Shown here: positions 40,694 through 52,621 of the stretch, one piece after another | How the letters are laid out: every line of letters starts with the position of its first letter | Position numbering within the stretch: the stretch's first letter is position 1 | From: Actinacidiphila epipremni | GTDB lineage: Bacteria > Actinomycetota > Actinomycetes > Streptomycetales > Streptomycetaceae | DNA: 64,000 nt | Assembly (NCBI RefSeq): GCF_012034175.1 | Contig: NZ_JAATEJ010000001.1 | Span: 620,001-684,000 of the forward strand | Reading direction: 5' to 3' | The notes under the pieces: model-generated | What the model saw: only the letters and a program-made list of their open reading frames with translations | What the model was told of the DNA's origin: nothing | Database searches by the model: none | Made by a program: the position numbers and the translations under genes

Positions 40694-41512
40694 TCAGCCG
40701 CGCTGGATGCCGCTGCTGTCCTGCAGCACACCGCGCCGCCCGTCCTGGGTCTGCGCGATCAGCGAGGCACCCCGCTGGTCGACGGCCAGGTACCAGGTGC
40801 CCGGGGTCAGTTCGGCGATCTGCGCGCCCGAGCCGTCCTCCGCGTACAGCGGGCGCGGCACCGGCACGGCGAACCAGAAGGCGCTGAAGTCCGAGGCCGG
40901 CGCGGCCGGCTGCGCCGCCTGCGGGGCCGCGGCCTGGGCGCCGTACGGCTGCTGCTGGCCGAAGGCCGGGTCGACGGACTGCGCGCCGCCCGGGTAGCCG
41001 TAACCGGCCTGCTGCGGGGCCGGGCCGCCGTAGGGCGCGCCGCCCACCGCGTACGGCTGCGGGGCCGGCGAAGGGGCGCCCGCCAGCGGGGCCTTGAGCG
41101 CCGGCAGCCGGCTCGACAGCGGCGCGACGACCGCGATGGCCAGCCCGAAGACCAGCGTCAGCCACAGGCCCGCGCCCTTGTCCAGGCCGCCGGAGTCCGC
41201 GAACAGCGTGGCCCACACGGCCGTCCAGCCGCTGAAGACGGCCAGCGCCACCGCCCACTGGTCGAACGTGAGGCCCAGGATCTGCTTGCCGGTGAACTGC
41301 GGGGAGCGCGCGGCCAGTATCGCGGCGGCGGCTGCGATCGCGGTCAGCGTCACCGACGGCAGGATCGGGAAGAACTGCGAGTGCCACAAGTTCCTGGACG
41401 CGGACCCGAATTCGGACTTGTAACTGTAGAACGGCAAGAAGGAAGCGATCAGCAGCAGCACCGCTGCTCCGATCACCGCGCCGTCTCCTCGGGTCAGGGA
41501 GCGGATGTTCAC
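40694..41512 (-). CDS. Membrane protein with Gly/Pro/Gln-rich region (DUF5336-like)
   Basis: This 272-residue protein has four hydrophobic helices in the first half (AVIGAAVLLLIASFLPFYSY, VTLTAIAAAAAILAA, WAVALAVFSGWTAVWATLF, GLWLTLVFGLAIAVVAPL). A repetitive cytoplasmic or external region of APQPYAVGGAPYGG, YGYPGGAQ and GQQQPYGAQAA follows. A small C-terminal domain includes FWFAVPVPRPLYAEDGSGAQIAELTPGTWYLAV, which reads like a short beta fold. Proteins of this layout are common in Streptomyces without a defined role. Confidence 0.75.
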   Translation of the reverse strand: MNIRSLTRGDGAVIGAAVLLLIASFLPFYSYKSEFGSASRNLWHSQFFPILPSVTLTAIAAAAAILAARSPQFTGKQILGLTFDQWAVALAVFSGWTAVWATLFADSGGLDKGAGLWLTLVFGLAIAVVAPLSSRLPALKAPLAGAPSPAPQPYAVGGAPYGGPAPQQAGYGYPGGAQSVDPAFGQQQPYGAQAAAPQAAQPAAPASDFSAFWFAVPVPRPLYAEDGSGAQIAELTPGTWYLAVDQRGASLIAQTQDGRRGVLQDSSGIQRG

Positions 41513-41669
41513 GTCAGGTCCTGTCCTTTGTCGGTACTGCTTCTGTCAGGTCGTGATCTGGTCGTACGTCCGTCAACCGGAGCGGTGCCCCATGGTACGA
41601 GGACGATCTTGGCCGGAGGGCCGGGCATGGTCATTGGTGCACGATCCATACCGGACTGCTACAGCCCTG

Positions 41670-42611
41670 TCACCTCTTGCCTTCCAGGAAGGAGGTGAGC
41701 CCGTCGGCGATCCCGACGGCGGCCTTCTGCCGCCACGCGGGATCGGTCATCTCGGCGGCGTCGTGCGCGTTGCGCATGTTGCCGCATTCGATGAAGACCT
41801 TGGGCACGGTCGTGAGATTGAGCCCGCCGAGGTCGTCGCGGATCGTCAGACCCTTCCCACCGAGGTAGTTTGCCAGCGGTTCGCCGGTCGCCGCCTGGAA
41901 ATGCGCGCGCAAAGTGGTGGCAAGGAGCAGGGAAGGCGCCGCGACGGCGCGGGTGTCCGCCGCGCCCTTGTGCACCGACTTCGGTGCGATCACATGGAAG
42001 CCGAAGCGGTCGGCGGGTGCGCCGTCCGCATGGATGGACAGGGCCGCGTCCGCATGCGCGGCGTTGCCTATGCGGGCCCTTTCGTCCACGCACGGACCCC
42101 ACGGCCGGTCCCCGTCGTACGTCAGGATCACCTTCGCGCCGCGCGCCTCCAGCAGCGCCCGCGCCCGGTGGGCCACGTCCAGCGTGTAGGCCGCCTCCGG
42201 ATAACCGGCGTTGGTGGCCGTGCCGGTGGTGTCGCACGCCTTGCGGTTGGTGCCGATGTCCACGAGCTTGTCGATCTCGGCGGTGTGCTTGGCGTTGCCC
42301 AGGTTGTGGCCGGGGTCGATCACGATGGTCCGGCCGGTCAGCTCCTTGCGGGGCGCGGCCGATGTCGCGTCGGGCAGGGCCGGCGCGGTGGTCGCGCCGT
42401 CACCGTGCGCCACCGGGGAGCCCGTCGTACGGCCGGCGTCCGCGGTCGCGGAGGCCCCGGCGGAGGGGCCGTGCGCCCCCGCGGGACCTGCGTCGTCGCC
42501 GCGCTGCGCGTCGTACACGAACCAGCCCCCGGTCAGTGCCGCCGCCACCACGATCGCCGTGATGACCAGCGGTCTGCCCCGAGCGCCCCCGCGTGACTCG
42601 TTGCTGAACAC
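41670..42611 (-). CDS. N-acetylmuramoyl-L-alanine amidase (Amidase_3)
   Basis: GTG 42611 gives 313 residues. A membrane-anchor or signal helix (PLVITAIVVAAALTGGWFVYDA) is followed by a Ser/Thr/Ala linker and the catalytic domain (about 105-313). Zn-site elements are IVIDPGHNLG (His), the PEAAYTLDVA region (Glu), LSIHADGAP (His) and the catalytic Glu in KVFIECGNMRN. The enzyme cuts the bond between MurNAc and L-Ala in peptidoglycan, outside the membrane, and would act in cell separation or wall turnover. An insertion with two Cys (KACDTTG, WGPCVDE) may form a disulfide. The ribosome site is weak. Confidence 0.9.
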   Translation of the reverse strand: MFSNESRGGARGRPLVITAIVVAAALTGGWFVYDAQRGDDAGPAGAHGPSAGASATADAGRTTGSPVAHGDGATTAPALPDATSAAPRKELTGRTIVIDPGHNLGNAKHTAEIDKLVDIGTNRKACDTTGTATNAGYPEAAYTLDVAHRARALLEARGAKVILTYDGDRPWGPCVDERARIGNAAHADAALSIHADGAPADRFGFHVIAPKSVHKGAADTRAVAAPSLLLATTLRAHFQAATGEPLANYLGGKGLTIRDDLGGLNLTTVPKVFIECGNMRNAHDAAEMTDPAWRQKAAVGIADGLTSFLEGKR

Positions 42612-42685
42612 GCCCGCGACTCTATCGGCCCCGCTCGCCGCCTCGCACCGCCCCTGTCGAAAGCGCCCCCGGGCGCCGCCGCGCA

Positions 42686-43324
42686 CTACCGTACGGCGCC
42701 GCCCGTCACTCTGCGCAGCAGCCGCAGCGAGCCGGTGCCGGGCTCCTCGGCGAAGACGCCCGACTCCAGGGCGCGGCGGTAGATCCGGTACGGCGCCTGG
42801 CCGCCGTCGGCGGGGTCGGGGAAGACGTCGTGGACGGCCAGCAGGCCGCCCTCGGCGACATGCGGGGCCCAGCCCTCGTAGTCGGCGCCGGCGTGCTCGT
42901 CGGTGTGGCCGCCGTCGACGAAGACCAGGGCGAACGGCCGCCCCCACAGCGCCGCGACCTGCGGCGAGCGCCCCACGATCGCGACGACGTGCTCCTCCAG
43001 GCCCGCGTCGTACAGGGCGCGGCGGAAGTGCGGGAGGGTGTCCATGCGGCCGGTGTGCTCGTCGACCAGGTCCGTATCGTGGTACTCCCAGCCCGGCTGC
43101 TGCTCCTCACTGCCGCGGTGGTGGTCCACGGTCACCGCGACCGTGCCCGCCTGCCGGGCGGCGTCGGCGAGCAGGATCGTGGAGCGCCCGCAGTAGCTGC
43201 CGATCTCCAGCACCGGCAGCCGCAGCTCCCGCGCGGCGCCGCGGGCCGCCTCGTAGAGCGCCAGGCCCTCGTCCGCGGGCATGAACCCCTTGGCGGCCTC
43301 GAACGCCGCGAGCACGTCGGTCAT
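42686..43324 (-). CDS. Class I SAM-dependent methyltransferase (O-methyltransferase type)
   Basis: ATG 43324 gives 212 residues. Motif I is VLEIGSYCGRSTILLADAAR. Acidic motifs are TVDHHRGSEEQQPGWEYHDTDLVDE and LVFVDGGHTDEHAGADYEGWAPHVAEGGLLAVHDVF, the latter with the metal-type DGGH..D pattern of caffeoyl-CoA-like O-methyltransferases (Methyltransf_24). The substrate is unknown. It is encoded between the amidase gene (same strand) and a divergent MFS gene. Confidence 0.88.
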   Translation of the reverse strand: MTDVLAAFEAAKGFMPADEGLALYEAARGAARELRLPVLEIGSYCGRSTILLADAARQAGTVAVTVDHHRGSEEQQPGWEYHDTDLVDEHTGRMDTLPHFRRALYDAGLEEHVVAIVGRSPQVAALWGRPFALVFVDGGHTDEHAGADYEGWAPHVAEGGLLAVHDVFPDPADGGQAPYRIYRRALESGVFAEEPGTGSLRLLRRVTGGAVR

Positions 43325-43554
43325 CCCCGTATCGTACGAAGCCGCTGGTGGCTGGGGCCCCGCGGGACCGGGCGATACGGTCGCGGGCTGACGCCGTACG
43401 GGTGAGGCGTGCGGTGGGCGGCGTACGACGGGGGCGGGCGGGGCGTAGGGCGCACGCGGTACGGGCCGGCGGGCGGGTCGGTCCCGGGTTGTGGTCCCGG
43501 GCCTGAGGAAGTAGGCCCGAAAGCCGATGCGCCGCGCCGGGGCGGGAGGGGACG

Positions 43555-45012
43555 ATGGTGCCCATGAGCGAAATCCTCGGACAGCGCACCACCTCGACAT
43601 CCGACTGCAAGCCGCGCCGGGCCGCGCCGGCCTGGGCGGTGCTGCTCGCGGTGTGTGCCGGGCAGTTCCTCGTCGTCCTCGACGTGTCGGTGGTCAACGT
43701 GGCGCTGCCGTCCATGCGCAGCGCCCTCGGCCTCGGCGAGAGCGCCCAGCAGTGGGTGGTCAACGGCTACGCGCTCACCTTCGCCGGCTTCCTGCTGCTC
43801 GGCGGGCGGGCCGCCGACCTCTTCGGCCGCAAGCGGATATTCGTCGCGGGGCTGGGCCTGTTCACGGCGGCGAGCCTGGCCGGCGGGCTCGCGCAGAACC
43901 CGACGATGCTGATCACCGCGCGGGCGGTGCAGGGCCTGGGCTCGGCGATCCTCGCGCCCACCACGCTGTCCATCCTCACCACCTCCTTCCCCGAGGGCCC
44001 CGAGCGGACCCGGGCGATCGCGACCTGGTCGGCGGTCGGCGCGGGCGGCGGCGCGGCCGGCAGCCTCGTCGGCGGCACCCTGACCGATCTGCTGTCCTGG
44101 CGCTGGGTGCTGCTGGTCAACGTGCCGGTGGGCGCGGTGGTGCTGGTCGCGGCGGCGCTGTTCCTGACCGAGGGCCGCGGCACGACCGTGCGGCGCCTCG
44201 ACATCCCCGGCGCGATCCTCGTCACCGGCGGCGTGGCCGCGCTGGCGTACGGCATCGCCGAGACCGAGACGCACGGGTGGTCCTCGCCGCACTCGCTGGT
44301 GCCGCTGGTCGGCGGTGTGCTGATCCTCGCGCTCTTCACGGCGGTCGAGGCGCGCGCCGCCCAACCGCTCGTGCCGTTGCGGCTGTTCACGGTGCGGTCG
44401 GTGGCGTCGGCGAACACGGTGCTCTTCGCGTCGGGCGCGGCGACCTTCGCCGTCTGGTATTTCCTGTCCCTCTACATGCAGCAGGTGCTGCACTACAGCC
44501 CGATCAAGGCGGGGCTGTCCTTCCTGCCGCACACCATCGCGATCGTGGCCGGCTCCAAGCTCGCGCCACGGCTGATGAGCCGGCTCGACTCGCGGCTGAT
44601 CGTCGCGTGCGGCGGCGCGATATCCGCGGTGGGGCTGGTGTGGCAGAGCCGGGTCAGCGCGGACGGCACGTTCCTCGGCATCATCCTCGGGCCCGGCATC
44701 CTGGCGATGTTCGGCGCGGGCCTGATGATGACGCCGGTCGCCGCGGCGGCGATGTCCGGCGTGGGCCGGGCGGAACAGGGCCTGGTGTCCGGCCTGCTCA
44801 ACACCTCCCGGCAACTCGGCGGCGCGCTGGGCCTGACGATCCTCGCCACGACCGCGGCCTCCCGCATCACCGCGCGCACGCAGGCCGGCGCCTCCACGGC
44901 CTCGGCCCTGTCCTCCGGCTACGGCCTGGCGTTCCTGGTCAGCGCGGCGTTCCTCGCGGCGGCGGCATGCCTGGCGATGCTCCTGCCGAAGCCGCAGCCG
45001 CACGAGGTCTGA
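43555..45012 (+). CDS. MFS drug exporter (DHA2 family, 14 TM)
   Basis: ATG 43555 follows GGGAGGGG (ATG 43564 is an alternative), and the product has 485 residues. It shows the EmrB/QacA landmarks LDVSVVNVALPSMR, GGRAADLFGRKRI (motif A), RAVQGLGSAILAPTTLSIL and LVGGTLTDLLSWRWVLLVNVP (motif C region), and 14 hydrophobic helices. It should export small toxic compounds or an own metabolite by proton antiport. No TetR or MarR gene is adjacent to suggest the inducer. Confidence 0.9.
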   Translation: MVPMSEILGQRTTSTSDCKPRRAAPAWAVLLAVCAGQFLVVLDVSVVNVALPSMRSALGLGESAQQWVVNGYALTFAGFLLLGGRAADLFGRKRIFVAGLGLFTAASLAGGLAQNPTMLITARAVQGLGSAILAPTTLSILTTSFPEGPERTRAIATWSAVGAGGGAAGSLVGGTLTDLLSWRWVLLVNVPVGAVVLVAAALFLTEGRGTTVRRLDIPGAILVTGGVAALAYGIAETETHGWSSPHSLVPLVGGVLILALFTAVEARAAQPLVPLRLFTVRSVASANTVLFASGAATFAVWYFLSLYMQQVLHYSPIKAGLSFLPHTIAIVAGSKLAPRLMSRLDSRLIVACGGAISAVGLVWQSRVSADGTFLGIILGPGILAMFGAGLMMTPVAAAAMSGVGRAEQGLVSGLLNTSRQLGGALGLTILATTAASRITARTQAGASTASALSSGYGLAFLVSAAFLAAAACLAMLLPKPQPHEV

Positions 45013-45136
45013 GCGGGCGGCTGCGCCGGGCTTGCGGGGGTGCGGTGGCGCCCCGGCGCCGGGCGCGGGCTGTAGCGCTGCCGGGTGCCGGGTGGGCCTG
45101 GCGTCGGGCCCGCGGGCCCGGAGGGCGTGGTGGGGG

Positions 45137-45763
45137 TCAGAGCCAGCCGTTCTGGCGGGCGGTGCGGACGGCCTCCATGCGGTTGCGGGTGCCGGTCTTG
45201 CCGATCGCGGCGGAGAGGTAGTTCCGTACGGTCGACTCGGACAGGAAGAGCTTGCCGGCGATGTCGGCGACGGTGGCGCCGTCCGCCGCCGCGTTCAGCA
45301 CGTCCCGTTCACGCGGGGTGAGCGGGCTCGGGCCCGCGCTGAGCGCGGCGGCGGCCAGGGCGGGGTCGATGACGCGCTCCCCGCGCAGCACCCGGCGGAT
45401 CGCCCCGGCCAGCTCCTCCACGGGCCCGTCCTTGACGAGGAAGCCGGCCGCGCCCGCCTCCATCGCCCGCCGCAGATAGCCGGGCCGCCCGAAGGTCGTG
45501 AGGATCAGCACCTGGCAGCCCGGCAGCTTCTGCCGCAACTCGGCGGCTGCGTCCAGCCCACTGCGCCCGGGCAGCTCGATGTCCAGCAGGGCCACATCCG
45601 GCCGCGCGGCCAGCGCCTCCGCGACGATCCGGTCGCCCGCGGACACCTGGGCGACGACCTCCATGTCGTCCTCCAGGTCCAGCAGCAGCGCGAGCGCCCC
45701 GCGCATCATCCCCTGATCCTCGGCGAGCAGTACCCTCACGGCCTTGGGTGCGTCCTCAGTCAC
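45137..45763 (-). CDS. NarL/LuxR response regulator (DesR-like), orphan
   Basis: I chose GTG 45763, which gives 208 residues. The receiver is complete: VRVLLAEDQGMMRGAL (acidic pair), DVALLDIELPGRSGL (phospho-Asp), LILTTFGRPG (Thr) and GFLVKDGP (Lys). The HTH is LTPRERDVLNAAADGATVADIAGKLFLSESTVRNYLSAAIGKTGTRNRMEAV. The DQGMMRGALA.LL and TTFGRPGYLRRAM signatures are those of DesR-type regulators that normally follow a DesK-type kinase and an ABC exporter. No kinase gene is adjacent here. A kinase of that type without a regulator lies at 54700-55947. Confidence 0.92.
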   Translation of the reverse strand: MTEDAPKAVRVLLAEDQGMMRGALALLLDLEDDMEVVAQVSAGDRIVAEALAARPDVALLDIELPGRSGLDAAAELRQKLPGCQVLILTTFGRPGYLRRAMEAGAAGFLVKDGPVEELAGAIRRVLRGERVIDPALAAAALSAGPSPLTPRERDVLNAAADGATVADIAGKLFLSESTVRNYLSAAIGKTGTRNRMEAVRTARQNGWL

Positions 45764-45896
45764 CCCGCCAGAGTACGATCCGACTCCGCCGGACCGTCCG
45801 CCGAGATCCACTCCGGGCGAGGCCGTACAGCTCTTGCGGCGTGCGCGGCCGGCTTATGGGCCGGGGCCGGTGGGGGTGGCGGCGTCCGGCGCTGGC

Positions 45897-47081
45897 TCAT
45901 GCGCCGGGGGCCGGTACGGGGTGGGCGTCATCGTCCAGCCACACCTGCCGTGCGCCGGTGGCGTCCGCCGTGAGGCCGAAGCGGCTTACCGGCGGGGTGC
46001 CCTGCGCTTGCCACCAGGACAGGGCTCGCGTGACCTCGTCCCACAGTCGGCGGGTGCCGGACTGGCGGACGAGGGCCCGTGTCGCCCCGGGGCGGAATTC
46101 GGCGGAGGCCCAGGCGCGCGAGCCCGGGCGCATGTCGAAGAACCAGAGGGTGGCGCCGGCGCCGGCGGTGTTGAGCACATGCGCGCAGTCCGGTACGAGC
46201 AGGCCGAGGACGAAGGCGGTGCCGCCCATCCGCCGCCGCCCCTCGCCGAGTTCGGTGAGGCTCACGGCGGTCTCGGAGGTGTCGGCGTCGCCGGGGTAGG
46301 GCCCGACGTGTGCGCGGAAGCGCCCCCAGTCCAGCCGCTGGGCCCGCAGCTTCATGAACTCCACCGGCCGCAGGAAGGGCCCGCTCGCGGTGCCGTCGCC
46401 GCGGACGGTGAGGCGTACGAGGGCGTCACCGTTGCCGTAGTGCGTCCCCCACGGCGCGAGCACCACCCCGCCGGGCCGGGTCTGCTCCAGCCACGCCGCC
46501 GGCAGCGCCCGTACGCCCGCGGTTGCGATCAGCCGGTCGTACGGCGCCCCGGCGGCCCAGCCGTCCCGCCCGTCCCCGCACACCACCTCGGCCCGCAGCC
46601 CCGCCCGTACCAGCGCGGCCCGCGCCCGTACGGCGACGGCCTCGTCCACCTCGACGGTGACGACACCGCCGCTGCCGCCCAGCCGCGCGGCGAGCAGCCC
46701 GGCGTTCCAGCCCGTCCCGGTCCCGACCTCCAGCACGCGCATCCCGGGCCGTACGTCGAGGTCCCGCAGCATGCCGGCGACGACGGACGGCATGCTCGCG
46801 GAACTCGTCGGCACATGCCCGGGGCCGGGCCCTTCATGCGCTCCGTCGTCCCACTGCGTGGTGACCGGCACATCCGCGTACGCGGCCCGCTCCCACGCGT
46901 CCCCGTCCACCCGCCGGTCCACGACCCGGCTCGCGCCGGACCCCATGTCGTACGGCCATATGACGTCGGGCAGGAACGCCCCCCGAGGCACGGCCTCGAA
47001 GACCTCGACCCACTCCGCCGCCAACGCCCCGCCCTCCCGCAGCAACCGCGTGAGCTCACCCCGCGGCCCGCCCGTACTCAC
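45897..47081 (-). CDS. Protein-L-isoaspartate O-methyltransferase homologue, likely RiPP-tailoring
   Basis: GTG 47081 overlaps the stop of a 40-residue peptide gene, and the product has 394 residues. The N-terminal half is a PIMT domain: VFEAVPRGAFLPD, the Thr/Ser-rich active segment VPTSSASMPSVVAGML, motif I VLEVGTGTGWNAGLLAARLG, and IATAGVRALPAAWLEQTRPGGVVLAPWG. A C-terminal domain of about 190 residues (from FLRPVEFMKLRAQRLDW) is not found in repair-type PIMT, which is near 210 residues. Long PIMT homologues coupled to a short Asp-rich peptide install aspartimide in imiditide/pamtide RiPPs. A protein-repair role is the alternative. Confidence 0.85.
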   Translation of the reverse strand: MSTGGPRGELTRLLREGGALAAEWVEVFEAVPRGAFLPDVIWPYDMGSGASRVVDRRVDGDAWERAAYADVPVTTQWDDGAHEGPGPGHVPTSSASMPSVVAGMLRDLDVRPGMRVLEVGTGTGWNAGLLAARLGGSGGVVTVEVDEAVAVRARAALVRAGLRAEVVCGDGRDGWAAGAPYDRLIATAGVRALPAAWLEQTRPGGVVLAPWGTHYGNGDALVRLTVRGDGTASGPFLRPVEFMKLRAQRLDWGRFRAHVGPYPGDADTSETAVSLTELGEGRRRMGGTAFVLGLLVPDCAHVLNTAGAGATLWFFDMRPGSRAWASAEFRPGATRALVRQSGTRRLWDEVTRALSWWQAQGTPPVSRFGLTADATGARQVWLDDDAHPVPAPGA

Positions 47082-47200
47082 TTCCGGTGCTTCCCGTCTC
47101 CCTCGGGAGCGTCCCCGTCCGGTGACGGCGGCTCCTTCGGGGGCGTCCAGGGCTGGCCGGGCAGGGGGTCGTCGTCACCCTGGGTGTTCCGCTGCGACAT
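47078..47200 (-). CDS. Asp/Pro/Gly-rich 40-residue peptide, candidate RiPP precursor
   Basis: ATG 47200 follows GAGGAGGCGG, an excellent ribosome site. The 40-residue product begins MSQRNTQGDDDPLPGQPW, continues with TPPKEPPSP, and ends DGDAPEGDGKHRK. It has six Asp residues, several in Asp-Gly or Asp-Pro context, no Cys, and a basic C-terminus. The stop overlaps the GTG of the PIMT homologue, so the two are translated together. Asp-Gly sites are the easiest to methylate and cyclise to aspartimide, which fits a substrate of the neighbouring enzyme. It could instead be only a small coupling peptide. No similar characterised precursor comes to mind with certainty. Confidence 0.7.
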   Translation of the reverse strand: MSQRNTQGDDDPLPGQPWTPPKEPPSPDGDAPEGDGKHRK

Positions 47201-47262
47201 GCGCCGCCTCCTCTCCGTTCCCTCCGATGATGCCGAACTCCGCGCCGGCATATGCCAATTGC

Positions 47263-48027
47263 CTACGCTTCCCACTCCCACGTGTGACGCCCCGGGTGCG
47301 CCGCGAACAGCGAGCAGCCGCCGACGTCGCCGGGCCCGAGGGCAGGGCAATCCGGCAGGACGCAAATGGCCCGGGCCCGGGTCTCGCCCTCCTCCCAGCG
47401 GGCCCATACCGCCCCGGCGTCGGGGCCGTCGAGGTGGTCGTAGGCGAGGGCGACGTGCCCGCCGAGGTGCCGGGCCTCCAGGTAACACAGAAGCGTCGCC
47501 GCGACGAGGTCCGGCGCGATGCGCGCGCCGAGCGCGAGCACCTGGCTCGTCAGCCCGGGCCCGAGGCGTACGGAGGCGTGGCAATAGGGGGCGGATTCCT
47601 CGACCTCCCCGCCGATGTGCGCCCACACGACCTTGCCGGGCTGGCCCTCCCGGGTGGCCACGCCCCACGCGTGCCGCGTGACGGCGTCCACGATCTGCAG
47701 CCCCCGCCCCCGCACCTGCTCCTCCCCGGCCTTCCCCAGCGCCGGCAGGCGATACGCGTCGCCGTCCCACACCTCCAGCCGCACACCACCGCGTCCGCGG
47801 CGGAGCAGGCGCGTCCCGACCGGCCCACCCGCCGCATGCTCCACGGCATTCGTGAGCAGCTCCGCCAGCACGACCTCCGCCTCATCCCCGAGCCCACCCA
47901 GCCCCCACCCCACGAGCACCGCCCGCAGGGCGTGCCTTGCCTGTGGCACGGAGGCCGGCGCGGCCGGCCAGAGCTGCACCACAGGTGCCGGGGAAACCAG
48001 CGGTGCCGCAGTGCTCGCAGGTGCCAT
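47263..48027 (-). CDS. ATP-binding protein (RsbW-like HATPase) with C-terminal extension
   Basis: ATG 48027 gives 254 residues. The N-terminal part (about 15-130) is an anti-sigma-type GHKL ATPase: VPQARHALRAVLVGWGLGGLGDEAEVVLAELLTNAVEHA (N box), VWDGDAYRLP (G1-like D.G) and GRGLQIVDAVTRHAWGV (G2). A second part of about 120 residues has LVAATLLCYLEARHLGGHVALAYDHLDGP and three Cys. Such proteins, divergent from Xre-DUF5753 genes, are frequent in Streptomyces and may act as kinases or partners of regulators. The divergent gene at 48159 is of that type. Confidence 0.85.
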   Translation of the reverse strand: MAPASTAAPLVSPAPVVQLWPAAPASVPQARHALRAVLVGWGLGGLGDEAEVVLAELLTNAVEHAAGGPVGTRLLRRGRGGVRLEVWDGDAYRLPALGKAGEEQVRGRGLQIVDAVTRHAWGVATREGQPGKVVWAHIGGEVEESAPYCHASVRLGPGLTSQVLALGARIAPDLVAATLLCYLEARHLGGHVALAYDHLDGPDAGAVWARWEEGETRARAICVLPDCPALGPGDVGGCSLFAAHPGRHTWEWEA

Positions 48028-48158
48028 GGGGCTTGCCCTTCCCTCTGTTCCGGCCCCGGGGCCGGAGCGGTACCTCTAGGTTGGGACCTGTCTACGGTCA
48101 GTGACAGAGGTGCCGCGTATTCAGAAGTGACCGAATACGCCGGAGGGGACGGTGCGCG

Positions 48159-49037
48159 ATGGGCTCGGCAAATGGCGACGGCCAGGGGTATATGGCGGTC
48201 CGGGCGGACGGTCTGCTGTCCTGGCTGCGCTACTTCGGGGAGGAGTTGCGCCTGGCGCGGGAGGCGTGCGGGATGTCCGTACGGCAACTCGCCGCGCACA
48301 CCTCGTATTCGTACCAGCAGCTCGCCAACGTCGAGACCGGGCGGCGTACACCGTCCGAGTCGTTCGCCGGCGAGGTCGACGCCGCTTTGGGCGCGGACGG
48401 GCGGTTCACGCGCCTGCTGCAACGGGTGCTGGCGGAAGCGCTGCCGGACTGGTTCGAGGGCTTCGTGCGGGAGGAGTCGCGGGCAACCCGCGTGCGGACG
48501 TACCAATGCCAGGTCGTGCACGGCCTGTTGCAGACCGAGGAGTACGCGCGCGCCCTGATCCGCGCCGGGTTGCCGAGGGCGTCCCCGGAGCAGGTCGAGG
48601 AGCTGGTCGCCCGGCGGATCGCCCGGCGGGCGATCTTCGAGCGGCCGGAGCCGCCCCACCTGTGGGTCGTCCTGGACGAGGCCGCGCTGCACCGGGCGGT
48701 GGGCGGCCCCGCGGTGATGGCCGGGCAGCTCAGGCAGCTGCTCAAGGACGCGGAGAACCCGCACGTGATCATCCAGGTCCTGCCGTTCTCCGCGGGCGCG
48801 CACGCGGCGACCAACGGCTCCTTCGTCCTCTGGTCCTACCGCGACCGCCCCGACACGATGTACATGGAGGGGATGTACGGCGACCGCGTCGTCCAGCAGC
48901 GGGCGAGCCTGGAGGACGTCCGGCTGCGCTACGAGCACCTCCAGGCGGTCGCCCTGCCGCAGGCGCAGTCGGCGGACATGATCCGCGGCGCACTGGAGCG
49001 CTTCACCGCGGCCCCGGCGCCAGAGGCCCCGGCGTAA
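48159..49037 (+). CDS. Xre-type HTH regulator with DUF5753 domain
   Basis: ATG 48159 gives 292 residues. The HTH (about 25-80) reads FGEELRLAREACGMSVRQLAAHTSYSYQQLANVETGRRTPS. The DUF5753 part (about 105-285) includes VVHGLLQTEEYARALIRAGLP, RQLLKDAENPHVIIQVLPFSAGAHAATNGSFVLW and YMEGMYGDRVVQ. It is divergent from the RsbW-like gene and 958 bp from the peptide/PIMT pair, so it may control those minus-strand genes. A role in development or metabolite control is typical of the family. Confidence 0.92.
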   Translation: MGSANGDGQGYMAVRADGLLSWLRYFGEELRLAREACGMSVRQLAAHTSYSYQQLANVETGRRTPSESFAGEVDAALGADGRFTRLLQRVLAEALPDWFEGFVREESRATRVRTYQCQVVHGLLQTEEYARALIRAGLPRASPEQVEELVARRIARRAIFERPEPPHLWVVLDEAALHRAVGGPAVMAGQLRQLLKDAENPHVIIQVLPFSAGAHAATNGSFVLWSYRDRPDTMYMEGMYGDRVVQQRASLEDVRLRYEHLQAVALPQAQSADMIRGALERFTAAPAPEAPA

Positions 49038-49170
49038 GCGGCCCCCGTGCAAGCGCCCCCGGCGTAACGGATCGCGGGGCCGTTCGGCGTGCCGGAGGGT
49101 GGGGACGGGGTACGGGCGGCCCACGATGGGGAAAGCTCTCATTTCCCGTCGAACGAGGAGAAAACGCCCG

Positions 49171-50652
49171 ATGCGCCACGGTCCGCTGGCCCGGCACTAT
49201 CCCGCGGTGGCGACAATGGTCGTCTTCGCCCTGGTGCCCTTCCTCGCGCTCTCCGCCGCGCTGGGGCCCATCACGCCGATCATCACCCGCGACCTCCACA
49301 TGAGCGCCCAGACGTTCAGCATCACCGAGGGCATGGCGAACGCCGGGTACGCGTTCGGCACCGTCCTGGCCGTGCAGTTCGCGCAGCACCTCCCGCAGCG
49401 GCGGATGCTCCTGGTCTACGGCATCGTGCTGGTCGTCGGCTCCGTGCTCACCGCCGCCGCGACCGGGCCGGGCATGTTCATCACCGGGCACATCCTCCAG
49501 GGCCTGTGCACCAGCCTGCTCCTCATCGCGGCCGTGCCGCCGCTCATCATCGGGTATCCGGCGTCCCGCCTGCGCACGACCGTCATCGTCCTGAACGTCT
49601 GCATCTTCGGCGCCGTCGCGCTCGGCCCGGTCGTCGGCGGCATCCAGGCCGACGCCCACGGATGGCGTCCGCTCTTCTGGGTCATCGCCGGCATCGCGGT
49701 GGCCGCGCTGATCCTCTCCGTCGTGACGTACCAGGAGGTCCCGCCGGCGAACAAAGGCGCCAGGATCGACTGGATCGCCCTCGTCCTGGCCTCCGCCGGC
49801 TGCGCCGCGGCCTTCTTCGGCGCCTCCGAGCTGACCACCCACCGCTTCCTCGACCCCGTCGCGAGCGGCCCGCTGCTGGGCGGGCTGCTGCTCATCGTGA
49901 TCCTCTTCGTCCACGAGTACCTGAGCAGGAACCCGCTGCTGTGTGTGGCCAGCCTGGTCAGCACGCTGCCGGTCGCCGGCATCGTCGCGGCCGTGTGCGC
50001 CGCCGCCGCGTCGGTCTCGGCGATCTCGCTGACGCTGACCGGCCTCGCGCCCACCATGAGCCCGCTGCACCTCGGCCTGCTCTACCTGCCCGAGTTCGGC
50101 GGCGCGGTGCTCGCCGCGTTCGTCTTCGGCACCGTCTTCCGCACCCACCTCCTGCACTACTTCGTCCTGGTCGGCCTGGCCTTCCTCGCCGTGGGCGTCG
50201 TGCTGATGAACGCCGCCTCGCCGCCCACCGGCGTCCTGACCTCCGTCGGCTCGGGCTTCGTCGGCGTCGGCGTGGGCTCCTCCGTCGTGCCGGCGCTGTT
50301 CATCGCCGGCTTCTCGCTGCGCTCCAACAATGTGCAGCGGGTCTTCGCGATCATCGAGCTGGTCCGGGCGGTCGCGGCGTTCATGGTCGCGCCGGTCCTG
50401 GTGTACGTCGCCGCGACGGTCGGCGGCGGCCTGGCCTCGGGCACCCGTACGGCGCTGTGGGTCTGCTTCGCGATCACCTGCGCCGGCGCGGTGATCGGGG
50501 CGGCGCTGTACGCGCTCGGCGGCGTACGACGGCCGCCGCACCCTTCCGTACCGGCGTGGATGAGCGGCGAGCAGCCCGGCTGGGACTCACCGCCGCTGCT
50601 GGCCGCCGTGCGGCGGGGCAAGGAGACGCAGCGGGACGACAACTGCCTTTAG
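49171..50652 (+). CDS. MFS transporter
   Basis: ATG 49171 follows GAGGAG, and the product has 493 residues. About 14 hydrophobic helices begin HYPAVATMVVFALVPFLALSAALGPITPII. Others include YAFGTVLAVQFAQHLPQRRMLLVYGIVLVVGSVL (motif A-like), LLLIAAVPPLIIGYP, and a conserved GPVVGGIQADAHGWRPLFWVIAGIA turn. The C-terminal 45 residues are soluble. It resembles actinobacterial drug-resistance-type MFS exporters but lacks the classical LDxTIVNVALP motif. The substrate is unknown. The following TetR gene could be its regulator. Confidence 0.87.
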   Translation: MRHGPLARHYPAVATMVVFALVPFLALSAALGPITPIITRDLHMSAQTFSITEGMANAGYAFGTVLAVQFAQHLPQRRMLLVYGIVLVVGSVLTAAATGPGMFITGHILQGLCTSLLLIAAVPPLIIGYPASRLRTTVIVLNVCIFGAVALGPVVGGIQADAHGWRPLFWVIAGIAVAALILSVVTYQEVPPANKGARIDWIALVLASAGCAAAFFGASELTTHRFLDPVASGPLLGGLLLIVILFVHEYLSRNPLLCVASLVSTLPVAGIVAAVCAAAASVSAISLTLTGLAPTMSPLHLGLLYLPEFGGAVLAAFVFGTVFRTHLLHYFVLVGLAFLAVGVVLMNAASPPTGVLTSVGSGFVGVGVGSSVVPALFIAGFSLRSNNVQRVFAIIELVRAVAAFMVAPVLVYVAATVGGGLASGTRTALWVCFAITCAGAVIGAALYALGGVRRPPHPSVPAWMSGEQPGWDSPPLLAAVRRGKETQRDDNCL

Positions 50653-50745
50653 GGCCTGCCACCCCTTCAGGGCCTCCTCCCAGGACCCGGCCAAGGCCCC
50701 AGGGCCCTACCGCCTCCGGAGTCCGTCGCCTACACCTCGTCCCCA

Positions 50746-50768
50746 CTTGCCTAAAGCTATTAGGCAAG
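50746..50768. promoter_or_regulatory. Perfect palindromic operator of the TetR gene
   Basis: CTTGCCTAA-AGCTA-TTAGGCAAG is a perfect 9-bp inverted repeat, 34 bp before the TetR start. A further half-site, TAGGCAAAA, lies at about 50782-50790 near the ribosome site. Its position over the presumed promoter fits autorepression by the TetR protein. Confidence 0.85.
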
Positions 50769-50802
50769 GGCAAGATGGCTGTAGGCAAAAGGAGGCAAGC
50801 CC

Positions 50803-51378
50803 ATGGTGAGAGCGGGACTGACCCCGGAGCGGCTGGCGCGCGCGGGAGCGGAGCTGGCGGACGAGGTCGGCTTCGACCAGGTGACCGTCTCCGCGCTCGC
50901 CCGGCGGTTCGACGTCAAGGTCGCGAGCCTGTACTCGCACGTCAAGAGCTCGCACGACCTCAAGACCCGCATCGCGCTGTACGCCCTCGCGGAGCTGGCC
51001 GACCGGGTCTCCGACGCGGTCGCGGGGCGGGCCGGCAAGGACGCGCTCACCGCCTTCGCAGACGCGTACCGCCGTTACGCCCACGAGCACCCCGGCCGCT
51101 ACGACGCCGCCCGCTTCCGCCTCGACCCCGCCACCGCAGCCGCGAGCGCCGGTGTGCGGCACGCGCAGACGGCCCGGGCGATCCTGCGCGGCTACGACCT
51201 CGCCGAGCCCGACGCGACGCACGCCGTCCGCATGCTCGGCAGCGCCTTCCACGGCTACATCAGCCTGGAGGCCGCCGGCGGCTTCGCCCACAGTGCCCCG
51301 GGCCCGCAGGAGTCGTGGGCCTGGATGGTCGACTCCCTCGACCTCCTGCTGCGCGGCCGGGCGGCCACCACCCCCTGA
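50803..51378 (+). CDS. TetR/AcrR-family regulator (WHG domain)
   Basis: ATG 50803 follows AAAAGGAGG, and the product has 191 residues. The HTH region is RLARAGAELADEVGFDQVTVSALARRFDVKVASLYSHVKSSHDLKTRI. The C-terminal part, with AFADAYRRYAHEHPGRYDAARF and LGSAFHGYISLEAAGGF, matches the WHG-type TetR ligand domain. A perfect palindrome at 50746-50768 is its likely operator. Candidate targets are its own gene with the SGNH hydrolase gene 49 bp downstream and, possibly, the MFS gene upstream. Confidence 0.9.
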   Translation: MVRAGLTPERLARAGAELADEVGFDQVTVSALARRFDVKVASLYSHVKSSHDLKTRIALYALAELADRVSDAVAGRAGKDALTAFADAYRRYAHEHPGRYDAARFRLDPATAAASAGVRHAQTARAILRGYDLAEPDATHAVRMLGSAFHGYISLEAAGGFAHSAPGPQESWAWMVDSLDLLLRGRAATTP

Positions 51379-51427
51379 CCCGCCCCGGCCCGCCCCATAC
51401 ACCCCCGACAAGCACCAGGCAGAGGCA

Positions 51428-52621
51428 ATGAACCCCCAGCACCACCACGGCAAGAGCCCCACCGTCACCACCCCCGTCACCGCGGACCTGCTCCGCGGCC
51501 ACCTCGACGTCGAGGCGACCGCGCACGGCCTGCTCCCGCACCGGCTGACCGCCCGGGCCCGCCGGCAGATCCCCGACGACCAGCTCGCCGTCGCCGAGGC
51601 CCAGCCCTCCGGCGTACGGCTGGCCTTCCGCACCCGGGCCACCGTCGTCGAGCTCGACACACTCCCCACCAAGCGCGTCTACCAGGGCTTCCCGCCCCCG
51701 CCGGACGGCGTCTACGACCTGCTCGTCGACGGCGTCCCCGCAGGCCGGGCCACCGTGCCCGGCGGCAACCTGCGCACGATCACCGACATGTTCACCCAGA
51801 CCGCCGAGCTGACCGAGGGCCAGCCCGGCACCGCCCGGTTCGCCGGGCTACCGGGGGGCGACAAGGACGTCGAGATCTGGCTCCCGCACACCGAGATCAC
51901 CGAGCTGATCGCCCTGCGCACCGACGCCCCCGTCGAACCGGCCCGGGCCGCCGGGCGCCGGGTGTGGCTGCACCACGGCAGCTCCATCAGCCACGGCTCC
52001 AACGCCACCCGCCCCACCGCCATATGGCCCGCCCTGGCCGCCGCGTCCGGCGGTGTGGAGCTGGTCAACCTGGGCTTCAGCGGCAGCGCCCTGGTCGACC
52101 CCTTCACCGCCCGCGCCATGCGCGACACCCCCGCGGACCTGATCAGCGTCAAGCTCGGCATCAACGTCGTCAACGCCGACCTCATGCGGCTGCGCGCCTT
52201 CACGCCCGCCGTCCACGGCTTCCTCGACACCCTCCGCGAGGGCCACCCGACGACGCCCCTCCTCGTCGTCTCGCCGATCCTGTGCCCGGTCCAGGAGGAC
52301 ACCCCCGGCCCCCTCGCCCCCGACTTCGCCGACGGCACCCTCCGCTTCAAGGCCCTCGGCGACCCCGCCGAGCGCGCCGCCGGCCGCCTCACCCTCACCG
52401 CCGTCCGGGAAGCCCTCGCCGCCGTCGTCACCGCCCGCACCCCCGACGACCCCCACCTCCACTACCTCGACGGCCTCGCCCTCTACGGCCCCGAGGACCA
52501 CGCCGAACTCCCCCTCCCCGACGGCCTCCACCCCGACGACCCCGGCCACCACCGCATCGCCGCCAACTTCACCCGCCTCGCCTTCACGCCCGGCGGCCCC
52601 TTCGCCGAACACGCTGCGTGA
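51428..52621 (+). CDS. SGNH/GDSL-type hydrolase
   Basis: ATG 51428 follows GGCAGAGG, and the product has 397 residues. The N-terminal 170 residues form a probable beta domain (VRLAFRTRATVVELDTL, GVYDLLVDGVPAGRATV). The catalytic domain follows: the nucleophile block is WLHHGSSISHGSNA (Ser in place of GDSL), then LVNLGFSGSALVDPF (Gly), SVKLGINVVNADLM (Asn), and the C-terminal pair DGLHPDDPGHHRIA (Asp, His). There is no signal peptide, so an intracellular esterase or deacetylase is likely. It is placed 49 bp after the TetR gene and is probably cotranscribed and repressed by it. Confidence 0.88.
   Translation: MNPQHHHGKSPTVTTPVTADLLRGHLDVEATAHGLLPHRLTARARRQIPDDQLAVAEAQPSGVRLAFRTRATVVELDTLPTKRVYQGFPPPPDGVYDLLVDGVPAGRATVPGGNLRTITDMFTQTAELTEGQPGTARFAGLPGGDKDVEIWLPHTEITELIALRTDAPVEPARAAGRRVWLHHGSSISHGSNATRPTAIWPALAAASGGVELVNLGFSGSALVDPFTARAMRDTPADLISVKLGINVVNADLMRLRAFTPAVHGFLDTLREGHPTTPLLVVSPILCPVQEDTPGPLAPDFADGTLRFKALGDPAERAAGRLTLTAVREALAAVVTARTPDDPHLHYLDGLALYGPEDHAELPLPDGLHPDDPGHHRIAANFTRLAFTPGGPFAEHAA

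What the first reader, a model, noticed from the sequence alone, without database searches (positions are those of the whole stretch)
45897..47200. Two-gene peptide/PIMT cassette: candidate aspartimide RiPP (imiditide/pamtide type)
A 40-residue Asp/Pro/Gly-rich peptide with a strong ribosome site is coupled by overlap to a 394-residue PIMT homologue with an extra C-terminal domain. That is the minimal composition of RiPPs in which a methyltransferase turns Asp into aspartimide. Asp-Gly sites in the peptide's second half are suitable. Upstream RsbW-like and Xre-DUF5753 genes may be its regulators. I do not know this precursor sequence as described.
Basis: partly seen in the sequence, partly recalled or inferred. 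Interest (0 to 1): 0.75.

Follow-up and report, generated by a model that had tools for sequence, protein, structure and literature searches.

The report
Ordinary pamtide peptide-methyltransferase gene pair
A small peptide gene sits directly in front of an enzyme that should convert one aspartate of the peptide into an aspartimide; the pair is a clear new member of a recently described bacterial peptide family (type I pamtides, also called imiditides), not a new kind of system.

Summary
A 40-residue peptide (47200-47078, minus strand; AGGAGG six bases before its ATG) overlaps by GTGA a 394-residue PIMT homologue (47081-45897) with an extra C-terminal domain. The enzyme model (mean pLDDT 92.6) has the C-terminal element order published for RiPP-linked PIMTs, a WXXXGXP motif, and T. 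maritima PIMT as closest solved fold. The peptide is not a chance ORF. Its profile matched 87 of 394 family genomes; 100 fetched regions held 93 peptide-PAMT pairs (window included). Of these, 90 keep a PDG/TDG motif (Asp28 here) and 83 the stop/start overlap. Length and composition match published type I pamtides. No ATP-grasp gene is near. So it is a new member of a known kind, with over 1,400 type I loci reported. Possibly less known: Xre-DUF5753 regulators lie within 2.6 kb upstream in 47 of 93 pairs, roughly 70 times the density in this genome, and in one genome the peptide core is fused to such a regulator. The window's own Xre gene, however, falls outside the DUF5753 subgroup usual at these loci. 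No chemistry was tested.

The parts
47078..47200 (-). pamtide precursor peptide, 40 aa; predicted modified residue Asp28 (codon 47117-47119, P-D-G), alternative Asp35 (codon 47096-47098, G-D-G); basic tail KHRK
   Evidence: conserved peptide upstream of PAMT in 93 pairs, window included
47207..47212 (-). ribosome-binding site AGGAGG, six bases before the peptide ATG
   Evidence: read from the sequence; in 85 of 92 pairs with a start codon a core of at least 4 nt stands before the start (the start with the best core was picked, so this count leans upward)
45897..47081 (-). PAMT (PIMT homologue), 394 aa, GTG start overlapping the peptide stop; catalytic domain about 62-245, C-terminal domain about 265-360, WXXXGXP at residues 357-363
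47263..48027 (-). RsbW/AbaA-like HATPase protein, ending 62 nt before the peptide start on the same strand; possibly in the same transcript
   Evidence: Pfam HATPase_c_2 E=1.2e-9; RsbW-like gene directly upstream of the peptide in 12 of 93 pairs
48159..49037 (+). Xre-DUF5753 (WhiJ-type) regulator, divergent; candidate local regulator
   Evidence: PF19054 E=3.4e-57; DUF5753 within 2.6 kb upstream in 47 of 93 pairs; this one lies outside the pamtide-adjacent DUF5753 subgroup (long branch)
48115..48140 (.). perfect 8-bp inverted repeat GCGTATTC-N10-GAATACGC between the divergent HATPase and Xre genes; untested candidate operator
   Evidence: one of six inverted pairs listed; not compared with chance

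Best explanation
The locus is a type I pamtide (imiditide) cassette. Inferred working: the peptide and the PAMT are made from one transcript, coupled at the GTGA overlap. The PAMT, through its extra C-terminal domain, recognises the linear peptide, probably by its basic tail. It methylates one Asp with SAM, most likely Asp28 in S-P-D-G. The methyl ester closes on the next backbone amide to an aspartimide, which slowly opens mainly to isoaspartate. Shown here: gene anatomy, conservation, enzyme family, predicted fold. Inferred from characterised relatives: substrate, site and chemistry. Not known for this class: biological role and export.
For: PAMT: full-length match to TIGR04188 at 296 bits and PCMT. 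In a quick tree it groups with stand-alone pamtide PAMTs apart from the own genome's three ATP-grasp-linked PAMTs. Those three score 448-490 bits against TIGR04188 (cut-off 380), while the two PAMTs of this genome that follow a short peptide score 296 and 311. [quoted passage not shown] best solved fold 1dl5 over 383 alignment columns. W-QAQ-G-T-P at residues 357-363. Peptide: matches in 15 of 35 genus genomes and 87 of 394 family genomes (the weakest are probably chance). 93 pairs in 91 of 100 fetched regions; 90 of 93 with PDG/TDG, 75 of 93 with late GDG, 88 of 93 with basic end. Median length 44, G 21.6%, P 20.9%, D 11.2% against the published ~45, 17.3, 16.8, 10.2. Nearest TIGR04187 ATP-grasp match on this contig about 516 kb away; no RiPP cyclase among the window frames scanned at 40694-52621.
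Against: No chemistry tested. TIGR04188 score is below its curated cut-off. One pair (L220) has a strong PAMT match (7e-185) but no PDG/TDG in its peptide, so the site is not strictly universal. Four regions (L191, L217, L222, L226) hold a recognisable peptide without a PAMT recognised directly downstream, and in 13 of 93 pairs the best PAMT stretch is weaker than 1e-100, so some pairs may be broken or divergent. Published precursors SpaA and NmaA were not available as letters, so no alignment to a proven substrate was possible.
Confidence: 0.92

Rival explanations
1. The peptide is not an exported RiPP but an intracellular, modification-controlled ligand or partner of neighbouring Xre-DUF5753/RsbW-like regulators; the aspartimide works as a switch or timer. 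(Compatible with the cassette being a pamtide by chemistry.)
For: DUF5753 within 2.6 kb upstream in 47 of 93 pairs: 0.25-0.27 per kb in the two kb directly upstream against 29 in 8.245 Mb of this genome. RsbW-like gene directly upstream in 12 of 93. One natural fusion of a DUF5753 regulator to the peptide core, followed by a full-length PAMT frame (L014/L208).
Against: The usual neighbours belong to a DUF5753 subgroup that also occurs elsewhere: of 20 members that I chose away from known pamtide loci, 19 had no PAMT match within about 3 kb. DUF397 and DUF5753 genes are already noted beside graspetide groups 11 and 13 (PMC13097080, passage seen), so they may simply be transcriptional regulators. 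One fusion in 93 pairs. The window's Xre is not in the usual subgroup.
Confidence: 0.15
2. The PAMT is a graspetide tailoring enzyme whose ATP-grasp partner lies elsewhere.
For: Best NCBIfam model is the ATP-grasp-system methyltransferase TIGR04188; the genome has three TIGR04187 ATP-grasp genes above cut-off and one partial match below it.
Against: Each of the three full ATP-grasp genes lies beside its own PAMT. The window PAMT groups with stand-alone ones, and a dedicated peptide precedes it.
Confidence: 0.03
3. The enzyme is a housekeeping isoaspartate repair PIMT and the short frame in front is a chance ORF.
For: Pfam PCMT domain.
Against: Peptide conserved with its Asp, overlap and codon pattern; about 150 extra C-terminal residues; seven further PIMT-type matches in the genome, three of them beside ATP-grasp genes.
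Confidence: 0.02

Closest known systems
Type I pamtides / imiditides (SpaA-SpaM of Streptomyces sparsogenes; NmaA-NmaM of Nonomuraea maritima)
   Same: Two genes; linear Gly/Pro/Asp-rich ~45-residue precursor with acidic/basic ends and conserved Asp; long PAMT with C-terminal domain and WXXXGXP
   Different: Own sequence variant; activity untested; RsbW-like gene directly upstream and a divergent Xre-DUF5753 gene (whether the characterised loci have these was not checked)
Group 13 graspetides (graspimiditides)
   Same: Homologous PAMT (TIGR04188)
   Different: No ATP-grasp gene near; PAMT in a different branch
Type II pamtides / cysimiditides (FcaA-FcaM)
   Same: Two-gene pair with PAMT
   Different: No CxxCxGxG zinc motif in the peptide
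whiJ-bldB-abaA regulatory loci of Streptomyces (PMC10294661, passages seen)
   Same: Neighbouring Xre (WhiJ-type) and HATPase (AbaA-type) genes
   Different: No DUF397 (BldB-type) match within about 6 kb; the pamtide pair follows the HATPase gene

Membership tests
Type I pamtide / imiditide | Precursor gene directly followed by a PAMT gene, no other RiPP primary enzyme | tested here: met
   window frames at 40694-52621 scanned, none a RiPP cyclase; frames further out not scanned
Type I pamtide / imiditide | Precursor about 45 aa, rich in Gly, Pro, Asp, with acidic N-half and basic C-end | tested here: met
   40 aa; 5 Gly, 9 Pro, 6 Asp; DDD early, KHRK at end; family values; published values
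Type I pamtide / imiditide | Highly conserved Asp beside Pro/Gly | tested here: met
   PDG/TDG in 90 of 93 pairs, window included
Type I pamtide / imiditide | PAMT with extra C-terminal domain (beta-alpha-beta4-alpha) and WXXXGXP | tested here: met
   motif in 32 of 35 related PAMTs scanned (two further rows with a stop codon were left out)
Type I pamtide / imiditide | PAMT methylates the linear peptide, giving +14 and -18 Da species | not testable with these tools
   needs co-expression and mass spectrometry
Group 13 graspetide | Adjacent ATP-grasp ligase | tested here: not met
   nearest TIGR04187 match on this contig about 516 kb away
Type II pamtide | Two CxxCxGxG motifs in the precursor | tested here: not met
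   no cysteine in the peptide
Repair PIMT | Single-domain PIMT of about 210-230 aa | tested here: not met
   394 aa with C-terminal domain
whiJ-bldB-abaA locus (neighbours) | DUF397 gene next to the Xre-DUF5753 gene | tested here: not met
   no DUF397 match in L147, 12.2 kb around the cassette; 17 of 20 background DUF5753 genes have one directly after

The most novel reading that the evidence does not exclude
Type I pamtides are not secreted antibiotics but intracellular regulatory peptides: the PAMT-installed aspartimide/isoaspartate controls binding to the adjacent Xre-DUF5753 (or RsbW-like) regulator. In one genome the peptide core has become the C-terminal tail of such a regulator (L208), so that a transcription factor itself would be aspartimide-modified.
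Probability: 0.13. Interest if true: 0.75.

Novelty: new member of a known kind. Interest (0 to 1): 0.3.

Why it matters
It adds a well-supported precursor/enzyme pair, with a predicted site and a large aligned family, to a RiPP class whose biological role is unknown. The upstream DUF5753 enrichment and the single regulator-peptide fusion give that open question a testable direction.

Tried and rejected
Rejected: chance ORF, repair PIMT and orphan graspetide enzyme (see rivals).

Tried and scaled back: the idea that the pamtide pair replaces the DUF397 partner of WhiJ-type regulators. At first it looked strong: DUF397 directly follows 17 of 20 background DUF5753 genes (chosen by me: 14 of this genome, 6 of G008) but only 5 of 47 pamtide-adjacent ones, and 1 of 39 on the same strand. 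The tree then put 35 of the 37 same-strand neighbours long enough to use into one DUF5753 subgroup (42 rows, SH-aLRT 100). Members of that subgroup taken away from known pamtide loci also lack an adjacent DUF397: one DUF397 match in 20 regions, about 2 kb from the regulator. So the lack of DUF397 is a property of the subgroup, not of the pamtide. The window's own Xre lies outside it (on a long branch, so its exact place is unsure).

A PADLOC scan gave only a partial methyltransferase-domain overlap (mad2) for the PAMT and weak helix-turn-helix matches for the Xre protein. No sigma-70-type promoter was found by consensus in 45700-48300. Paper searches: 'imiditide', 'aspartimide', 'methyltransferase'; 'pamtide'; 'imiditide(s)'; 'DUF5753', 'methyltransferase', 'RiPP'; 'DUF397', 'DUF5753'; PIMT, Streptomyces, whiJ, abaA-like, DUF397. 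In the parts that I read of the two pamtide/imiditide papers I saw no mention of DUF5753, and one search counts none in either. The JACS 2023 imiditide paper did not appear in these searches and supplements were not available to me, so I cannot say that the association, or this very peptide, is unpublished.

Full report
What is there. On the minus strand, a 40-codon frame (47200-47078) begins with ATG six bases after AGGAGG and ends in TGA; the next frame (47081-45897, GTG start, 394 aa) starts inside that stop codon. 62 nt before the peptide ends an RsbW-like HATPase gene (47263-48027), and divergent from that lies an Xre-DUF5753 gene (48159-49037). I scanned window frames between 40694 and 52621 for families. 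Besides the pair and these two they include a response regulator, two MFS transporters, a TetR regulator, a GDSL lipase, an amidase, a Methyltransf_24 protein and one frame without a Pfam match; none is a RiPP cyclase. The nearest RiPP-type ATP-grasp match on this contig is about 516 kb away, and the genome's three full ATP-grasp genes each lie beside another PIMT homologue. The genome appears to belong to Actinacidiphila, inferred from the contig length shared by G026:C1 and the record titled Actinacidiphila alni.

The enzyme. It matches TIGR04188 (methyltransferase of ATP-grasp peptide systems) end to end but below the curated cut-off (296 against 380 bits). The three ATP-grasp-linked PIMT homologues of the same genome score 448-490 bits, and the other homologue that follows a short peptide scores 311. 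In a quick tree, the window enzyme groups with PAMTs that follow a pamtide peptide and apart from the ATP-grasp-linked ones. A model from 36 sequences (mean pLDDT 92.6, pTM 0.91; [quoted passage not shown] T. maritima PIMT (1dl5), which that paper names as the solved enzyme with such a domain, is the best fold match. The WXXXGXP motif that the review PMC13001092 describes is present at residues 357-363.

The peptide. Of 30 homologous loci first fetched (the window's own included), 15 carry a peptide with the same motif before the enzyme, all among the 16 best matches (49% identity or more); the other 15 showed none (the search pattern was made after seeing the first examples). A 14-row profile matched 15 of 35 genomes of the genus and 87 of 394 drawn from the family. 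I fetched 100 regions that hold 102 of the 108 listed matches: 93 peptide-PAMT pairs, the window's among them, lie in 91 of the regions. Of the nine regions without a pair, five have weak matches (E 1e-5 or worse) that look like chance. Four (L191, L217, L222, L226) hold a recognisable peptide; in L226 the PDG has become PGG, as expected if an orphan copy decays. PDG/TDG occurs within the last 24 residues in 90 of 93 pairs. The three exceptions are L178 (PEG), L216 (PDG present but the frame runs on differently after it) and L220 (motif lost). L178 and L216 have weak PAMT matches (4e-58 and 7e-50), as do 11 other pairs, but L220 has a strong one (7e-185). A late GDG is found in 75 of 93. A second form of the peptide in the named loci ends ...PTPDGGPGVPNPP and lacks the GDG, which favours the PDG Asp (Asp28 here) as the site. 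Codon differences lean to third positions: 48.9% over all 93 peptides, with 47% of codon differences synonymous (pairs are not independent).

Comparison with what is known. PMC10787088 defines type I pamtides as two-gene clusters with ~45-residue precursors (Gly 17.3%, Pro 16.8%, Asp 10.2%), a conserved Asp, and acidic and basic ends. My family has median length 44 and 21.6, 20.9 and 11.2%. The review counts 1,414 type I loci. The window pair is a member on every feature that I could test by sequence. Its chemistry is inferred from SpaA/SpaM and NmaA/NmaM.

Context. Xre-DUF5753 genes lie within 2.6 kb upstream of 47 of 93 pairs: 0.25 and 0.27 per kb in the two kb next to the peptide, 0 to 0.023 per kb downstream. 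The own genome has 29 such genes in 8.245 Mb, and the richest of the 16 genomes searched 46 in about 9.0 Mb. The local excess is therefore about 70-fold over the own genome and about 50-fold over the richest; the two counts use different profiles. RsbW-like genes lie directly upstream, same strand, in 12 of 93 pairs, the window among them. An earlier inference, that the peptide replaces the DUF397 partner, did not survive (see Tried and rejected). DUF397 and DUF5753 genes have already been noted beside graspetide groups 11 and 13 (PMC13097080, passage seen; a related table row in PMC8939145). WhiJ- and AbaA-type genes belong to a known developmental regulatory network with BldB/DUF397 proteins (PMC10294661, passages seen). 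One genome (G002; L014/L208) carries the peptide core as the in-frame tail of a 301-residue DUF5753 protein whose stop overlaps a full-length PAMT frame. It is a single case and could be recent.

Verdict. Observation confirmed, interpretation supported, novelty low: a new member of a known kind. The open and more interesting question is whether these peptides act with the DUF5753 regulators.

Noticed in passing
L014 563-1468 (same place in L208): Xre-DUF5753 regulator fused in frame to a pamtide core (...DDHVANAPWTPPEPSPDGQSPEGDGQHRK), with the PAMT gene starting in its stop codon; the only such fusion among 93 pairs.
   Followed up: partly
L281 5656-5790 (G000:C1, about 490 kb from the window cassette): A second stand-alone PAMT in the same genome follows a different 44-residue peptide (Gly/Ser/Asp-rich, one Pro) with a ribosome site; probably a second, different type I pamtide.
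   Followed up: partly
L220 around 6001: Pamtide peptide that has lost the PDG motif although its PAMT match is strong; the late GDG Asp is left.
   Followed up: no
L226 around 6000: Peptide copy without a PAMT recognised directly downstream in which PDG has become PGG.
   Followed up: no
L167 (6001 and 10128), L168 (6000 and 10354): Two pamtide cassettes on the same strand about 4 kb apart in two genomes.
   Followed up: no
L063, L069, L070, L073, L075, L076, L087, L107, L110, L125, L128: A second peptide subfamily ending like ...LPGEPYPGPHQPPTPDGGPGVPNPPK before PAMTs; it shares LPGxP and PDG with the window's type but not the late GDG.
   Followed up: partly
L164 / L056: The frame that holds the pamtide peptide is open upstream into an RsbW-like C-terminal sequence; fusion or decayed gene not decided.
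   Followed up: no
L358-L377: The DUF5753 subgroup seen at pamtide loci also occurs without adjacent DUF397 genes beside varied genes, e.g. an RsbW-like gene (L359, L373) and a protein with a CxxxCxxC stretch that looks like a radical SAM enzyme by eye (L358).
   Followed up: partly
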